Source: a virus
DNA: 64,000 nucleotides
IMG/VR virus record: IMGVR_UViG_3300044815_000115
Coordinates: 39,320-103,319 of that record
Direction: 5' to 3' (one strand)
Shown: piece by piece, positions 20,944-61,786 of the stretch
How positions within the stretch are numbered: the stretch's first letter is position 1
Layout: each line of letters opens with the position of its first letter
The notes under the pieces: generated by a model
What the model saw: the letters and a program-made list of their open reading frames with translations, nothing else
What the model was told of the DNA's origin: nothing
Database searches by the model: none
Made by a program: the position numbers and the translations under genes

Positions 20944-21386
20944 CACCCGGAGAGGCGGCCAGGCTGCTCGCGGCCTGCGCCATGTACGACTTCCGAACGG
21001 TCGAGAAGGCCGACGGGATCGCATGGCATCACGTGATCGGCGATCTCGACTTCGACGATGCGATGGAGTCGGTGCGCCAGCACTACCAGAACTCGACGGA
21101 CCGCATGATGCCCGCCCACGTCCGCCAGGGCGTGAAGGCGATCCGGGCCGAACGGCGTCGACAGGAACCGTCGGAGGCGACTGCGCTGCCGTCACCGTTC
21201 GAGCAGGACATGAACCGGCAGGTCCGTATGGAGGCTGGCGCGGCCAGTGTCCGGGAGGTGCTGGCAAGGATCACCTCCCACCTGGACCAGAAGTCCCCGG
21301 CGCCGGTGTCGGCGATGGAGCAGCTGCGGGCGATCACTCCAGGACCGGACTGGGCCGGCGACGAGCAGGACGGGGATCAGCGATGA
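20940..21386 (+). CDS. candidate helicase loader
   Basis: 148 residues, ATGA overlap. Helical N-terminus (TPGEAARLLAACAMYDFRTV, then AMESVRQHYQNSTDRMMPAHVRQGV) is a form often found directly before phage DnaB genes. It lacks a Walker motif, so would be a non-ATPase loader or adaptor. Assigned mainly by its place between initiator and helicase. Confidence 0.5.
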   Translation: MTPGEAARLLAACAMYDFRTVEKADGIAWHHVIGDLDFDDAMESVRQHYQNSTDRMMPAHVRQGVKAIRAERRRQEPSEATALPSPFEQDMNRQVRMEAGAASVREVLARITSHLDQKSPAPVSAMEQLRAITPGPDWAGDEQDGDQR

Positions 21387-22726
21387 CCGAGGGCAGGTCC
21401 GACCGGATGCCGCCGCAGGACGTCGAGGCGGAGCAGGCGACGCTGGGCGGGATGCTGCTGTCGAAGGACACCATCGACGCCGTGTCGGAGATCCTGGCTC
21501 CGGGAGACTTCTACCGGCCGATCCACAAGACGGTGTTCGACGCGATCGTCGGGTTGCACGCGAAGGGCGAGCCGGCCGATTCCCGCACCGTCACCGGGGC
21601 ACTGTTCGACTCCGGTGACCTGGTGCGGGTCGGTGGTGCCCCGTACCTGCACACCCTGACGGAGTGCGTCCCGACCGCGGCGAGCGCCCCGTACTACGCG
21701 CGGATCGTCGCCGACCGGGCCGTGTCCCGGCGTCTGGTCGAGGCGGGCATCCGTATCACCCAGTTGGGTTACGGCTCCGCTGCCGGTGACGGGGTTGAGT
21801 TGTCCGATGTCGTCGACCTGGCGCAGCAGGCCGTGTACGACATCACCGTCGACCGTGGCGCGAGCGAATACTCGCGGCTCGACGAGATGCTGCAGCCCAC
21901 CCTCGACGACATCGAGGCCGCCGCCGGCAAGGACGGCCGGATGTCGGGGGTGCCGACCGGTTTCATCGACATGGACCGGCTCCTCAACGGCCTACAGCCA
22001 GGTCAGGTCATCGTCGTTGCTGGACGGCCAGGGCTCGGCAAGTCGACGGTGGGTTTGGACGTCGTCCGGCATGCGGCGATCCGGGCGGATATGGCGTCGG
22101 CGTTCTTCACCTTGGAGATGAGCAAGGTGGAGGTGGTCACGCGCCTACTGTCGGCCGAGGCCCGCGTGCCGATGCATGTCCTGCGCTCGGGGCAACTTTC
22201 CGACGACGACTGGGCACGACTGGCCCGACGCATGGGGGAGATCTCCGAAGCGCCGATCTTCGTCGACGACACCCCGAGCATGGGTTTGGCGGACATCCGT
22301 GCCAAGGCGCGGCAGTTGAAGAAGCGCCACAACCTGCGGCTGCTGGTCGTCGACTATCTGCAGCTGATGACCTCGCCGAAGCGGACGGAGAGCCGGCAGC
22401 AGGAGGTTTCGGACCTGTCGCGGAGTCTGAAGCTGCTGGCGAAGGAGATCGAGTGTCCGATCATCGCGGTGAGCCAGTTGAACCGGGGCCCGGAGAATCG
22501 TCAGGACAAGCGTCCGCAACTGTCCGACCTGCGCGAGTCGGGTTCGATCGAGCAGGACGCTGACGTGGTGATCCTGCTGCACCGCGACGACTACTACGAC
22601 AAGGAGTCGGCCCGCGCAGGCGAGGCGGATTTCATCGTGGCTAAACACCGCAATGGCCCGACGGACACGGTCACGGTCGCCGCCCAACTGCACTTCTCAC
22701 GCTTCGTCGATATGGCGATCGCATGA
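21383..22726 (+). CDS. dnaB: replicative DNA helicase (DnaB)
   Basis: 447 residues from ATG 21383 (ATGA overlap; the frame is open 230 codons further up but over the neighbours). The N-terminal helical domain opens PPQDVEAEQATLGGML. The RecA-fold domain has Walker A AGRPGLGKST (Lys about 220), a Walker B-like LRLLVVDYLQLM, and ISQLNRG/ESGSIEQDADVV motifs of hexameric DnaB. It would unwind DNA 5' to 3' ahead of a host polymerase. Host DnaG is presumably used since no primase is present. Confidence 0.95.
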   Translation: MTEGRSDRMPPQDVEAEQATLGGMLLSKDTIDAVSEILAPGDFYRPIHKTVFDAIVGLHAKGEPADSRTVTGALFDSGDLVRVGGAPYLHTLTECVPTAASAPYYARIVADRAVSRRLVEAGIRITQLGYGSAAGDGVELSDVVDLAQQAVYDITVDRGASEYSRLDEMLQPTLDDIEAAAGKDGRMSGVPTGFIDMDRLLNGLQPGQVIVVAGRPGLGKSTVGLDVVRHAAIRADMASAFFTLEMSKVEVVTRLLSAEARVPMHVLRSGQLSDDDWARLARRMGEISEAPIFVDDTPSMGLADIRAKARQLKKRHNLRLLVVDYLQLMTSPKRTESRQQEVSDLSRSLKLLAKEIECPIIAVSQLNRGPENRQDKRPQLSDLRESGSIEQDADVVILLHRDDYYDKESARAGEADFIVAKHRNGPTDTVTVAAQLHFSRFVDMAIA

Positions 22727-22732
22727 CGTACC

Positions 22733-22765
22733 GGGGACCTGAACGATCTCAGCGCTCAGGTCCCC
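22733..22765 (+). terminator. strong stem-loop after dnaB
   Basis: GGGGACCTGA (22733-22742) pairs perfectly with TCAGGTCCCC (22756-22765), 13-base loop, seven bases after the helicase stop. No T-run follows, as is common in actinomycete terminators. Confidence 0.6.
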
Positions 22766-22825
22766 GCACCCCTGGTTCTACCGCACCGCTCGCACGAACC
22801 CAAGCCAATCGACCAAGGAGTGATC

Positions 22826-39952: not shown

Positions 39953-39995
39953 GTGGGGCCGGGCTGTTCGGACGTGGACAGCCCGGCCCCGCACC
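39953..39995 (+). terminator. strong stem-loop after the capsid genes
   Basis: GGGGCCGGGCTGT (39955-39967) pairs exactly with ACAGCCCGGCCCC (39978-39990), ten-base loop; outer GTG/CAC adds to it. It should reduce read-through from the highly expressed capsid genes. Confidence 0.75.
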
Positions 39996-53514: not shown

Positions 53515-56112
53515 ATGGCGACAGTAGGCACCTCCACCCAAACCGATGTGCTCGCCTACCCGGTGCACCCGGCGATCGCCCGGGACATGAGCACCGGCAG
53601 CATCGGCGGGCGGCTCTACTCGGTGATCCGCACCGCGGCGGACACACTGACCGTCTACCGGTCGACCGACGCCGGCGGTTCGTGGTCGTCGTGGGCGTCG
53701 TTCACCCACACCGGCCTGCAGGAATGGTCAAGGCTGATCATCGACCGGGTCGGGTACGGGCACATCGCCTACCGGGTCGGCACGGGCAGCGCCGACACCA
53801 TCTGGTACCGCCGGGTAGGGTTGCTGTCCGCCTCGTTCACCAGTGGTCTGCAATGCTCCAACACCGACGCGAACGGCGGCACCATCGGATCCCGCTGGCA
53901 AGGCGTCGACCTAGCCGTCGCCCGCAACTCGGACGGCTCGTACGCCATCGCGGTCGGCGGGGCGCACTCCTACTCCACGTCAGGGCCGTACGGCATCATC
54001 GTCAACGGGGTCACCATCAGCCCGAACGGTGTGATCGCCCTCAACAACGGGATCATCGTCAACAACCGCGGCTGGAATGTGCCCGGCACCCCACCCGGCC
54101 GGTCCGGCATCGCCATGGAAGTCGAACACAACGGGGACGGTTTCACCTCCACCACCCCGCACCTGTGGATCTGCTGGGGCCGCACCACACTGCGGCAGGT
54201 GAAACTGGCCTGGCAGGGCGCTGCGATCGGCTGGTCCGGGCCGTCCAACCACCAGATCATCCGAACCGGCCTCACCGCCCACAACTATGTGGGCGGGCGC
54301 TGGGACGGCAGACAATGGCTGATGGCCGTCGTCAACCCCGACGACGCCACCACCGTCCGCGTCTACCAACGTAACCAGGCCAACAGCCTCACCACCGTCT
54401 ACGACACCCCCACCCACCCCACCGGCACTGTCACGCAGATGGCGACCAGCTACGACAACGCCACCAAAGACATCCGGGTGTACGCGGTCGGCACCAGCAC
54501 GGCGGTGCTCTACTACTGCGACTACACCCGGGCCACCGGCGTGTGGACCGCATGGGCGACCGTCGTCGCCACCGCCGTCCTCGGCAGCAGCGAATGGTCG
54601 GTGCGGGGCGCCGGTAGTTACGGCAACGCCAAACTGGATGTGCTCACCACCGCGTCCGGGTCACCTAACACGGTCACGCACACCGCGCAGGCCGCGTCGT
54701 CGGTGCCGAACATCGCCTCGTGGAACACGTCCGGGCAGCCGTACGCCGACGGTGGCGCCGCAGACGTGGGCGCAGCGCTCACCCTCGACTGGGACTTCAG
54801 CGACCCCGACCCCGGCCAGACGCAGGGGTCGTATGCACTGTCACGGCAGATCGGGGTGGCCGCCGTCCAGTACTACACGGCGGCCGGCGCAACGTGGGGC
54901 GGAACAGAAGTGCAGAACTCGACCGCCACCACACAGGTCACCCTGGCGTCCGGGTGGGGGTCGGGCACCGACGCCGTCCACACCTACAAGGTGAAGGTGT
55001 GGGACTCCACCTCTGTGCCCGCCGTCGCCTACTCCAGTGCGCTCACCCTCATCCCCTCCGTCAAAGTCAACCCGACGATCACCGCCCCGACCGCCGCCCA
55101 GGTCATCAACGGCAGTGGTGTCGTCATGACCTGGACAGTCTCCGAGCAGACCACCTACCGGGTGCGGCTGCTCGAAATGCCCTCCGGTCTGCAGCTGTAC
55201 AGCTCCGACGACGTGGCAGGCACCGTCACGTCGTACGCGGTGCCGTACGAGCTGCGCAACGACGGGTCGTGGCGGCTGGAGTTGCGCACCAAAAACAATG
55301 AGGGTCTGCTGTCCAACACGGTCACCGTCGACTTCACCACCGTGTACGCGGCGCCGCCCGCCCCGATCAGCACCCTCGTCGCGTCCACCACCGGCGGCAC
55401 CATCGGGGTCACGTCCAGCGCGCTCACCCCCGTCGGGAGCCAGCCGGCAATCGTCGCCATGGACCTGTACCGGCGTAAAGCGGCGACACCGGTACTCAAC
55501 ACCAACCCGGGTTTCGCCGGGAACGTCACCGGCTGGCAGGTCGGCGGAGGCGGAACACCGGGCACCCTCACCTATTCGACCGTGCAGTTCCACGACGGAC
55601 CCGGCGCGGCCCGGTATGTGCCCGCCGTGTCCGGCGGATCCGCCACCCCGTCAGTCGAACAATCCACCAACGTGCTGCTCGACCTCACCAAGCAGTACCT
55701 CGGATCCGCGTGGATCCGGCCCGACACGGCCAACAAACCGGCCATCATCTACCTCAACTGGTACACGTCGGCCGGCGCCTACATTTCCTCCACCACCATG
55801 CAGGTGACCACACCGGTCGCCGGGGCCTGGCAGTACCTGGAGGTCCGCGGCGATCCCAGCAGCATCGCGACCGCCGCCCGCGCCACCGTCTCCGCCGGAG
55901 TGGGGAACACACCCGCGTCGACTGACGCCTTCTACCTCGACGAGGTCGAGTTGGAGGTGTACGACCCCGACCCGGGTGTCCGGGTCGCCGCAGGGGTCAA
56001 CTCGCCTGCCGTCGTCGCGGACTGGGGCCCGGCGTCGGGCGTCGACTACGAGTACCGGTGGACGGCGAGAGGCAGCAACGGCACAACCGTGACCGGACCG
56101 TGGACCAGCTGA
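53515..56112 (+). CDS. large minor tail protein, candidate receptor-binding protein
   Basis: 865 residues from ATG 53515 (TGAGGAGACGGC before). N-terminal half has a BNR/Asp-box motif (RSTDAGGSWSSW, residue about 50) and further beta-propeller-type repeats (YIAVGGAHSYS; HLWICWGRTTLRQVKLAW). Two Fn3-like regions follow (TITAPTAAQVINGSGVVMTW, APPAPISTLVAST), and then a carbohydrate-binding-like module (NPGFAGNVTGWQVGG, WIRPDTANKPAIIYLNWYTSAG). The combination points to host-surface recognition. Confidence 0.7.
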   Translation: MATVGTSTQTDVLAYPVHPAIARDMSTGSIGGRLYSVIRTAADTLTVYRSTDAGGSWSSWASFTHTGLQEWSRLIIDRVGYGHIAYRVGTGSADTIWYRRVGLLSASFTSGLQCSNTDANGGTIGSRWQGVDLAVARNSDGSYAIAVGGAHSYSTSGPYGIIVNGVTISPNGVIALNNGIIVNNRGWNVPGTPPGRSGIAMEVEHNGDGFTSTTPHLWICWGRTTLRQVKLAWQGAAIGWSGPSNHQIIRTGLTAHNYVGGRWDGRQWLMAVVNPDDATTVRVYQRNQANSLTTVYDTPTHPTGTVTQMATSYDNATKDIRVYAVGTSTAVLYYCDYTRATGVWTAWATVVATAVLGSSEWSVRGAGSYGNAKLDVLTTASGSPNTVTHTAQAASSVPNIASWNTSGQPYADGGAADVGAALTLDWDFSDPDPGQTQGSYALSRQIGVAAVQYYTAAGATWGGTEVQNSTATTQVTLASGWGSGTDAVHTYKVKVWDSTSVPAVAYSSALTLIPSVKVNPTITAPTAAQVINGSGVVMTWTVSEQTTYRVRLLEMPSGLQLYSSDDVAGTVTSYAVPYELRNDGSWRLELRTKNNEGLLSNTVTVDFTTVYAAPPAPISTLVASTTGGTIGVTSSALTPVGSQPAIVAMDLYRRKAATPVLNTNPGFAGNVTGWQVGGGGTPGTLTYSTVQFHDGPGAARYVPAVSGGSATPSVEQSTNVLLDLTKQYLGSAWIRPDTANKPAIIYLNWYTSAGAYISSTTMQVTTPVAGAWQYLEVRGDPSSIATAARATVSAGVGNTPASTDAFYLDEVELEVYDPDPGVRVAAGVNSPAVVADWGPASGVDYEYRWTARGSNGTTVTGPWTS

Positions 56113-56129
56113 CCACCTGGAGGAGCCTC

Positions 56130-56561
56130 ATGCCCGACCCCAACCCGATCTTCGACTTGGGCGACCCCATCTGGATTCAGGTTGTTGCCGTCGCTGAAAC
56201 CCCACCCGGCATGGTCGGCTACAACGGCCGGTACCTGTCCGTGCCCACCCAGGCGGTGCTGCCACCGCTCGGCACCCGCGGCATCATCCGGGTGTCCGGC
56301 GTCGACGTTCCCGGTTATCTGCGCCAGGGTGCCGGCGGCTACGAGTGGGTGATGATGCCGCCCGTGGACCCGGTCATCGCCCTGGTGGATTCGCTGCCCG
56401 GCCCGCAGGGCTGGTCGGACCTGCCGTCCAGGGACACGTGGCGGTCGATCGCCGACTACCTGCGAGGCCTCGGGGTCAGCCAGCCGGATCTCAGCAACGG
56501 CCTGACCGCCCTGTACAGCTCGGCCCGGACCAACCTGCTCACCGAGTACGGGGTCGTCTGA
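56130..56561 (+). CDS. tail-region hypothetical protein
   Basis: 143 residues from ATG 56130 (TGGAGGAG at 56118-56125). N-terminal strand part (IWIQVVAVAETPPGM, GTRGIIRVSGVDVPG) and a C-terminal helical end. Last tail-module gene. Confidence 0.55.
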   Translation: MPDPNPIFDLGDPIWIQVVAVAETPPGMVGYNGRYLSVPTQAVLPPLGTRGIIRVSGVDVPGYLRQGAGGYEWVMMPPVDPVIALVDSLPGPQGWSDLPSRDTWRSIADYLRGLGVSQPDLSNGLTALYSSARTNLLTEYGVV

Positions 56562-56580
56562 CCCCCAGGGCTACCCCATA

Positions 56581-56681
56581 GTCGGCGCCCCGGACGTCCA
56601 CCGCGCTGATGCCCCCATTACGCGCGGTCCCCGAATCACATTCGACGGACGTCCGGGGCGTCCCCATTTCCGTGCGCCGAC
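56581..56681 (+). ncRNA. structured element: predicted three-way RNA junction
   Basis: P1: CGCCCCGGACGTCC (56586-56599) pairs fully with GGACGTCCGGGGCG (56647-56660), 14 pairs. Inside, P2: ACCGCGC/GCGCGGT (56600-56606 with 56622-56628) abuts P1, and P3: CGAAT-CAC-ATTCG (56632-56644). Only 3 and 2 unpaired bases link the helices. GTCGG (56581) can pair with CCGAC (56677-56681) outside. It lies in the 136-base gap before the endolysin gene; its ribosome site is 56686-56692. A terminator, an attenuator or a structured RNA are all possible. Confidence 0.6.
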
Positions 56682-56697
56682 CATCCAGGAGGGCCAC

Positions 56698-57645
56698 ATG
56701 ACCCAGTCGACCGAATACCCGGACCTGAAGTGGATGCCGCCGAAAGCATTCGGCACCGGCCGCGACGGCAAGGCCGTCCGGTACATCGTCATCCACTACA
56801 CCGCAGGCGCCGAACGGAACACGTCGGCCGAGGACGGCGCGGTCTACGACCAGAACCGCACCGACGGCACGTCGACGCACTACTTCGTCGACTCCAACAG
56901 CGTCGTGCAGTGCGTGCTGACGAAGAACCGGGGTAACGCCGCACGGACCAAGGGCAACCGGTTGGGTATCCAGTACGAGCTGTGCGGCACGGTGCAGACC
57001 CGGGCGCAGTGGCTCGACGCGGCCAGCCTGCCGACGCTGAAGAACGCCGCCCGGCAGGTGGCCCGGGACTGCAAGAAGTACGGGATCCCGGTGCGGCGGC
57101 TGTCCGTCGCCGAGACCCGCCGGGCCTGGGACGAGTTCCCGGCCGGGCCGAGGGGCATCGTCGGGCACGTCGACTGTACGAACGCCTACCCGGAAGACGG
57201 CGGCGACCACACCGACCCGGGAACGCAGTTCCCATGGGATGTGTTCCTGGACCTCGTCCAGGCCGAACTCACACCGAAGGAGCCAGACGTGAACCTCACC
57301 GACAAGGTTGGCAGCAAGGCGTACCCGGCCCGCACCGTCGGCAACGTCCTCAACGACCTGGAAGGGCTACGCGACACCCTCATCGGCGATGCCACCGGCA
57401 CCAAGGCCGCAGCCGTCAAGGCGGGCTCACCGGTCGGCAAGCTCATGGCGATGCCTGCCCAGCTCGACACCATCGGCAAAGCACTGCTCGCCGCGGTCGC
57501 CGCCAGCAAAGGTGCCGACGTCGACGAAGACGCCATCGCCGCCGGTGTCCTCGCCGGGCTCACCCCCGAGAAGATCGCCGCGTGGATTCCCGAAGGCGTC
57601 GCGCAAGAGGTCGTCGACCTGCTCGCCGCCCGCCTGCAAAGCTGA
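56698..57645 (+). CDS. endolysin, N-acetylmuramoyl-L-alanine amidase
   Basis: 315 residues from ATG 56698 with AGGAGGG. Amidase_2 domain (residues about 28-190): zinc ligands His33 (YIVIHYTAG), His157 (GHVDC) and a third at His171 (GDHTDPG); STHYFVD around His61 and an N-linked Glu/Tyr region. It cleaves the amide between N-acetylmuramate and L-alanine. The C-terminal 110 residues, with helical repeats (GNVLNDLEGLRD; AIAAGVLAGLTPEKIAAW), may bind the wall. Adjacent holin-like genes complete the lysis cassette. Confidence 0.9.
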   Translation: MTQSTEYPDLKWMPPKAFGTGRDGKAVRYIVIHYTAGAERNTSAEDGAVYDQNRTDGTSTHYFVDSNSVVQCVLTKNRGNAARTKGNRLGIQYELCGTVQTRAQWLDAASLPTLKNAARQVARDCKKYGIPVRRLSVAETRRAWDEFPAGPRGIVGHVDCTNAYPEDGGDHTDPGTQFPWDVFLDLVQAELTPKEPDVNLTDKVGSKAYPARTVGNVLNDLEGLRDTLIGDATGTKAAAVKAGSPVGKLMAMPAQLDTIGKALLAAVAASKGADVDEDAIAAGVLAGLTPEKIAAWIPEGVAQEVVDLLAARLQS

Positions 57646-60940: not shown

Positions 60941-60980
60941 GCAGATCGCCCGTCAAGCTCGCCCAGTCGACCACACAGAA

Positions 60981-61030
60981 GACCCCGTACCCCTGAGCCA
61001 TCTCGGCTCGGCGGGTACGGGGTCTGTTTT
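60981..61030. terminator. strong intrinsic terminator, bidirectional
   Basis: GACCCCGTACCC (60981-60992) pairs perfectly with GGGTACGGGGTC (61013-61024), followed by TGTTTT (61025-61030), and an inner GAGCC/GGCTC hairpin. It separates the plus-strand unit from the minus-strand antitoxin-like gene. Confidence 0.85.
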
Positions 61031-61055
61031 GCGTTTGAGGCCACCGACGGTCAGG

Positions 61056-61466
61056 TCAGTAATCGCGGGCGTCTTCCCACCGCTCTACGGCGTCCTGCGA
61101 CTGGTCGCGAACCTGCTGGTCGTCCAGCGTGTAGGCGGGGTCCAGGCCGGTGTCCGCGTCGGCACCGTTCCAGACCGCGATGCGCCACGGGCCGCCGTCG
61201 AGGAGGTTCTGGTTGGAGTAGACGTCGAGCGCGACCTGCTCGGCACTGCCGTTGTCGGTGACGGTCTCGGCCGGGTGCATGGCCTGCCAGATCGTCCCGT
61301 CCTCATTGCCCGCCTGGATCTCGACGGTGTAGGCAGTCACGGGGACGATGCGAGCGGCCGGCTTGCCGTTACGGGTGAGGATGATGTTGGCGCCCTGCTG
61401 GACGCTGGTGACGAGGTCGCCAAGCGTTTTCCGGGCCTCTTCGATTCCTATGTTTTTGCTGCTCAT
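61056..61466 (-). CDS. Phd/YefM-type antitoxin-like protein
   Basis: 136 residues from ATG 61466. IGIEEARKTLGDLVTSVQQGANIILTRNGKPAARIVPV is the Phd/YefM DNA-binding fold (EARxxLxxLxxxV...l.R.gkpva.ivp). The remaining ~85 residues are an unusually long acidic extension without match. No toxin gene lies next to it on either side, which is unusual for the family. The promoter overlaps its palindromes, so it is probably autorepressed. Confidence 0.7.
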   Translation of the reverse strand: MSSKNIGIEEARKTLGDLVTSVQQGANIILTRNGKPAARIVPVTAYTVEIQAGNEDGTIWQAMHPAETVTDNGSAEQVALDVYSNQNLLDGGPWRIAVWNGADADTGLDPAYTLDDQQVRDQSQDAVERWEDARDY

Positions 61467-61472
61467 GTGCAT

Positions 61473-61518
61473 AACCTTAAGGTCTGTGAGGACGCTCGTC
61501 AAGGGAGACCTTAAGGTT
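61473..61518 (-). promoter_or_regulatory. promoter bracketed by ACCTTAAGGT operators
   Basis: ACCTTAAGGT occurs at 61474-61483 and 61508-61517, as part of a 13-base inverted repeat AACCTTAAGGTCT/AGACCTTAAGGTT. On the minus strand TTGACG (61502-61497), 17 bases, TAAGGT (61479-61474) places -10 in the first palindrome. The start codon at 61466 follows by about seven bases, so the transcript may be leaderless. Confidence 0.65.
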
Positions 61519-61786
61519 TCTCTGTTTCAGACTCAGGCCCACCGGGACCTACGTCGAGGTGCGGCCGGTTCTTCCCGCGACCCGCCCGCGCGCACCGGAT
61601 CAGCCACCGGCCGAACCGCTCCGCGTCAGCCGCGGACACCCGCACTGTCACCCCCGCCCCGTTGTACGCGTTCACCCAGATACGGCCGTCGTCGCGGACA
61701 CCACCGGTCAGCTCACCGCCGTCATGCCGGCTCCCCACCCGCAACCGGTCCGGCATCTGATCCTCGGGGGGCTCGGGCGCGCTCAT
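61511..61786 (-). CDS. small hypothetical protein
   Basis: 91 residues from ATG 61786 (overlaps the stop of the next minus-strand gene, ATGA). RIWVNAYNGAGVTVRVSAADAERFGRWLIR looks like a beta hairpin plus helix. Its end overlaps the distal operator of the antitoxin gene. Unknown function. Confidence 0.5.
   Translation of the reverse strand: MSAPEPPEDQMPDRLRVGSRHDGGELTGGVRDDGRIWVNAYNGAGVTVRVSAADAERFGRWLIRCARAGRGKNRPHLDVGPGGPESETEKP

What the first reader, a model, noticed from the sequence alone, without database searches (positions are those of the whole stretch)
56581..56681. Compact three-way-junction element before the endolysin gene
A 14-pair stem encloses two perfect hairpins with almost no free bases. 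It is more elaborate than a terminator and adjoins the lysis start and ribosome site. No known riboswitch matches. It could time lysis, terminate late transcripts, or act on DNA, for example in recombination.
Basis: partly seen in the sequence, partly recalled or inferred. Interest (0 to 1): 0.65.

Follow-up and report, generated by a model that had tools for sequence, protein, structure and literature searches.

The report
Branched hairpin between phage gene modules
The folded three-way-junction element really exists just before the endolysin gene of this actinobacterial phage, but related phages lack it and it most likely acts as a terminator-like RNA hairpin, of unusual branched shape, at the border between the tail genes and the lysis genes.

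Summary
A perfect 14-bp stem (56586-56599/56647-56660) encloses a 12-pair and a 5-pair hairpin with 5 junction bases. It fills the 136-nt gap between the last tail-module gene and an Amidase_2 endolysin. RNA folding z = -6.7 on the coding strand; 14-bp inverted repeats at such spacing are expected about 0.07 times per window. No Rfam family, BLAST match or covariance-model relative was found. In more than 50 IMG/VR relatives of the endolysin, DNA similarity starts at 56681 or later and never enters the stem. Most have little or no gap there; only one (L008) has a comparably strong but unrelated structure. The element is thus lineage-specific, on a module boundary, and covariation cannot be tested. 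The same record has other strong U-less hairpins at gene ends and one U-tailed terminator between convergent genes, so the likeliest role is an I-shaped (U-less) terminator, attenuator or mRNA-end protector, here branched. Predicted ribosome-site accessibility does not change with the element, which argues against a translational lysis timer. Each attribute has precedent (phiC31 U-less terminators, Ms6 lysis-leader terminator, a branched Enterococcus terminator). Modest interest; function untested.

The parts
56586..56599 (+). 5' arm of the 14-bp closing stem (CGCCCCGGACGTCC)
56600..56628 (+). hairpin 1: 12 pairs, CCCC loop, one bulged C, one G-U pair
56632..56644 (+). hairpin 2: 5 pairs, CAC loop
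56647..56660 (+). 3' arm of the closing stem (GGACGTCCGGGGCG), followed by TCCCCATTTCC, no U-tract
56582..56589 (+). 5' arm of outer 8-bp inverted repeat GTCGGCGC; mutually exclusive with the base of the 14-bp stem in RNA
56676..56683 (+). 3' arm of outer inverted repeat GCGCCGAC, shortly before the ribosome site
56687..56693 (+). Shine-Dalgarno region AGGAGG of the endolysin gene
56130..56561 (+). upstream gene, 143 aa, last gene of the tail module; relative only in L026 (39%)
56698..57645 (+). endolysin, N-acetylmuramoyl-L-alanine amidase (Amidase_2, 315 aa)

Best explanation
The element is an intergenic, terminator-type RNA structure of branched shape and without a U-tract, starting 24 nt after the stop codon of the last tail gene. 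During late transcription the GC-rich stem closes behind RNA polymerase. It most likely pauses or partly terminates transcription and blocks 3'-5' decay of the tail mRNA, so that less transcript continues into the lysis genes. Shown: the structure, its + strand bias, its place between modules, the absence of a U-tract, and similar U-less hairpins at other gene ends of the record. Inferred: transcription through it, partial termination, and end protection.
For: The fold is far stronger than shuffles and stronger on the + strand. It lies 24 nt after the stop codon, with no consensus promoter found in the region. The record has several other strong intergenic hairpins without U-tracts, directly after stop codons or in gaps: window 22732-22766, 39953-39992 after the head genes, L024 17783-17813. 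A U-tailed hairpin (about 60980-61025) lies between the convergent genes beyond the lysis region. A published survey finds terminator hairpins mostly within 80 nt of the stop codon, often clustered and without poly-U (PMC8355165). I-shaped elements within 50 bp of stop codons are described for mycobacteria (PMC12288462), and one inside an operon lowered reporter expression in vivo (PMC5335608).
Against: No transcript data. Mycobacterial polymerase in vitro needs a U-tract (Czyz 2014, cited in PMC12288462 and PMC5335608). Strong termination here would silence the lysis genes unless read-through or antitermination occurs, since no promoter was found and only 37 nt remain after the stem. Most related endolysin genes do without any such structure.
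Confidence: 0.55

Rival explanations
1. A regulated attenuator (antitermination leader) that delays lysis: the branched structure stops late transcripts until a phage factor lets polymerase through, so lysis genes are expressed last.
For: Position directly before the endolysin; the title of a cited paper on mycobacteriophage Ms6 (Garcia 2002, reference seen) states that its lysis genes depend on a terminator in the leader RNA; a branched shape offers more protein surface than a plain hairpin (inference).
Against: Not conserved in more than 50 relatives of the endolysin; no promoter found; no alternative fold that would free or mask the ribosome site; no antiterminator identified.
Confidence: 0.15
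2. An mRNA processing or stability element only: the structure shields the 3' end of tail mRNA and the 5' end of lysis mRNA after endonuclease cleavage, without terminating transcription.
For: Compact GC-rich fold with few free bases, placed between the stop codon and the ribosome site and leaving about 36 nt free before the start; the U-poor flank argues against efficient intrinsic termination.
Against: No direct evidence of cleavage.
Confidence: 0.17
3. A DNA element: a recombination or insertion scar (MITE-like, hairpin-forming DNA) that created or marks the tail-lysis module junction.
For: Sits just upstream of where similarity to other endolysin cassettes begins (56681 or later); forms a nested outer inverted repeat in DNA; both arms hold the palindrome GGACGTCC.
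Against: Single copy in the record; no copy found in phages, plasmids or 395 actinobacterial genomes; GGACGTCC is not enriched in the window; two G-U pairs would be mismatches on the complementary strand, and the + strand RNA score is much better.
Confidence: 0.1
4. Chance structure in a GC-rich gap.
For: GC-rich DNA folds easily, and one coding segment reaches z = -6.
Against: 14-bp perfect arms expected 0.07 per window; 0 of 200 shuffles fold as well; the most significant intergenic fold of the structural-gene region.
Confidence: 0.03

Closest known systems
U-less (I-shaped) intrinsic terminators of actinobacteria and of actinophage phiC31 (Unniraman 2001; Ingham 1995, both cited in PMC5335608)
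   Same: GC-rich stem-loop shortly after a stop codon, no poly-U tail, in a GC-rich actinobacterial phage
   Different: As a rule single hairpins; this one is a three-way junction. Termination has not been tested here.
Branched factor-independent terminator of Enterococcus faecalis (Johnson 2014, cited in PMC5335608)
   Same: Branched RNA structure in a terminator-like position
   Different: That one has a trailing U-tract and belongs to another host group; no sequence comparison was possible (paper not held)
Mycobacteriophage Ms6 lysis-leader terminator (Garcia 2002, reference seen)
   Same: Structure before the lysis genes that could limit their transcription
   Different: [quoted passage not shown] here no promoter was found. 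The paper is not held
Structured gap before the endolysin in IMGVR_UViG_3300029174_000035 (L008/L139)
   Same: About 139-nt gap before a 47%-identical endolysin, filled by strong GC-rich hairpins without U-tract
   Different: No sequence similarity; a long interrupted hairpin plus a second one rather than a three-way junction

Membership tests
Canonical intrinsic (L-shaped) terminator | GC-rich stem-loop directly followed by a U-tract | tested here: not met
   Flank is TCCCCATTTCC; the terminator scan found no site here
I-shaped (U-less) terminator | Stable hairpin without U-tract, within about 50 nt of a stop codon | tested here: met
   Stem starts 24 nt after the stop at 56561; z = -6.7 (definition from PMC12288462)
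I-shaped (U-less) terminator | Causes termination or reduced downstream transcript | not testable with these tools
   No transcript data
I-shaped (U-less) terminator | Single unbranched hairpin (usual form) | tested here: not met
   Three-way junction with two inner hairpins; hence 'works like', not 'is', an I-shaped terminator
Known riboswitch or RNA family | Score above an Rfam gathering threshold | tested here: not met
   None at gathering; one chance match at E 6.8, 14 bits against a cut-off of 43
Conserved cis-regulatory RNA of lysis cassettes | Present with covariation before related endolysins | tested here: not met
   No convincing model hit in 80 loci (best E 0.5); DNA similarity stops at 56681
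Repeated mobile element (MITE or REP) | Several copies in this or other genomes | tested here: not met

The most novel reading that the evidence does not exclude
A branched cis-acting RNA that times phage lysis: a conditional U-less terminator before the endolysin gene, relieved by a phage or host factor late in infection.
Probability: 0.1. Interest if true: 0.6.

Novelty: new member of a known kind. Interest (0 to 1): 0.22.

Why it matters
If it terminates or attenuates, it would be a clear natural test of whether U-less, branched hairpins work as terminators in high-GC actinobacterial phages, a disputed point, and of how a newly acquired lysis module is set to the right expression level. As it stands it is one lineage-specific element with no evidence of function.

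Tried and rejected
Rfam at both thresholds. BLAST of the gap in phages and plasmids: only short chance matches. A pattern with two GGACGTCC arms in IMG/VR: 47 stretches, none sharing the element's sequence or fold when inspected. A loop-sequence pattern: none. A covariance model from the single sequence in relatives and 395 actinobacterial genomes: chance-level hits only, best E 0.005 for one genome out of 395. CCCCAT occurring three times in the gap: not significant, 710 of 2000 shuffles have some 6-mer three times. Ribosome-site masking: mean unpaired probability 0.50 with or without the element. Tail-gene, 143-aa-gene and holin-position proteins as bait gave no close syntenic relative; L025, the nearest tail-gene relative, ends before the gap. 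Hammerhead-like core: considered and dropped (no GAAA motif, CUGAUGC not CUGAUGA, no Rfam hit).

Full report
What is there. The window is part of a 103,319-base virus record of IMG/VR, an actinobacteriophage judging by its protein relatives. Its late region runs from the terminase (30.6 kb) through the head genes and tape measure (47.5-51.3 kb) to tail genes, an Amidase_2 endolysin at 56698-57645 and small genes up to 58596. The gap 56562-56697 is almost filled by the element. The perfect stem 56586-56599/56647-56660, hairpin 1 (56600-56628) and hairpin 2 (56632-56644) form a tight three-way junction with five unpaired junction bases. The RNA z-score is -6.74 on the + strand and -2.72 on the - strand. 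Two G-U pairs (56585/56661 and 56608/56619) exist only in + strand RNA. The long arms are not expected by chance. The outer inverted repeat 56582-56589/56676-56683 cannot form together with the whole stem and has probability near zero in the RNA ensemble.

Is it conserved? No. The endolysin has many relatives, up to 83% identical. In a BLASTN comparison of 56101-57200, every match starts at 56681 or later (most at the ribosome site, the start codon or inside the gene), and none reaches the stem. Of 54 relatives checked, 33 have a gap of at most 45 nt or an overlap before the endolysin; in 15 the crude gene caller saw a larger gap and in 6 none could be called (five loci repeat records already fetched). 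In 24 relatives, including nearly all of the latter two groups, the 136 nt upstream of the start fold no better than z = -2.5, except L139/L008 with z = -4.1. Seven named actinophages with related endolysins have gaps of -8 to 55 nt by their annotation. The upstream 143-aa gene has a relative only in L026, where another sequence follows. So the element sits on a junction of two independently inherited modules and is private to this lineage as far as the collections show. The covariance model built from it finds nothing convincing in 80 endolysin loci, ten relative records or 395 actinobacterial genomes, and BLAST finds nothing in phages or plasmids. A model from one sequence is weak, so a similar element with unlike sequence could be missed.

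What does it do? The best comparison is inside the record. Strong GC-rich hairpins without a U-tract lie in several other gene gaps: window 22732-22766 right after a DnaB-like helicase gene, 39953-39992 after the head genes, and several in the left part. A hairpin with a U-rich tail lies between the convergent genes in 60941-61055. The element fits that set by position (24 nt after a stop codon), GC content and lack of U-tract, and differs by its branching. I therefore read it as a U-less terminator-type boundary hairpin that pauses or partly terminates polymerase and protects mRNA ends. Whether U-less hairpins terminate in actinobacteria is disputed: in-vitro work says a U-tract is needed, in-vivo reporters show reduced expression (PMC12288462, PMC5335608), and a survey of 13 genomes found poly-U unnecessary (PMC8355165).

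Lysis timing. The cited Ms6 work (reference only) makes a leader terminator before lysis genes plausible, but here neither a promoter nor conservation supports it. The predicted accessibility of the ribosome site is the same with or without the element, which argues against a translational switch.

Verdict. Observation confirmed; interpretation partly supported; a lineage-specific, branched, U-less terminator-like hairpin at a module junction, of modest interest.

Noticed in passing
window 39953-39992: 15-bp GC-rich hairpin GTGGGGCCGGGCTGT...ACAGCCCGGCCCCGC without U-tract in the gap after the head genes.
   Followed up: partly
window 22732-22766: 14-bp U-less hairpin 5 nt after the stop of a DnaB-like helicase gene (21383-22726).
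   Followed up: partly
window 60980-61025: Terminator-like hairpin with U-rich tail between convergent genes beyond the lysis region.
   Followed up: partly
window 61056-61520: Gene on the - strand (61056-61466, 136 aa) with a Phd/YefM antitoxin domain, preceded by two perfect ACCTTAAGGT palindromes 34 bp apart (61474-61483, 61508-61517), the only ones in the window: possibly autoregulatory operators; no partner toxin was looked for.
   Followed up: partly
L008 2853-2991: A relative with a 47% identical endolysin has a 139-nt gap filled by a long GC-rich hairpin plus a second one, unrelated in sequence to this element.
   Followed up: partly
L024 13541-13600 (record about 33.4 kb): Two adjacent GC-rich hairpins containing GACGTCC just after a stop codon, before a gap of about 1.8 kb without confidently called genes.
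   Followed up: no
L023 4759-4880: Long G-run region (G-rich inverted repeats; possible quadruplex or sequencing difficulty) in a 543-nt gap.
   Followed up: no
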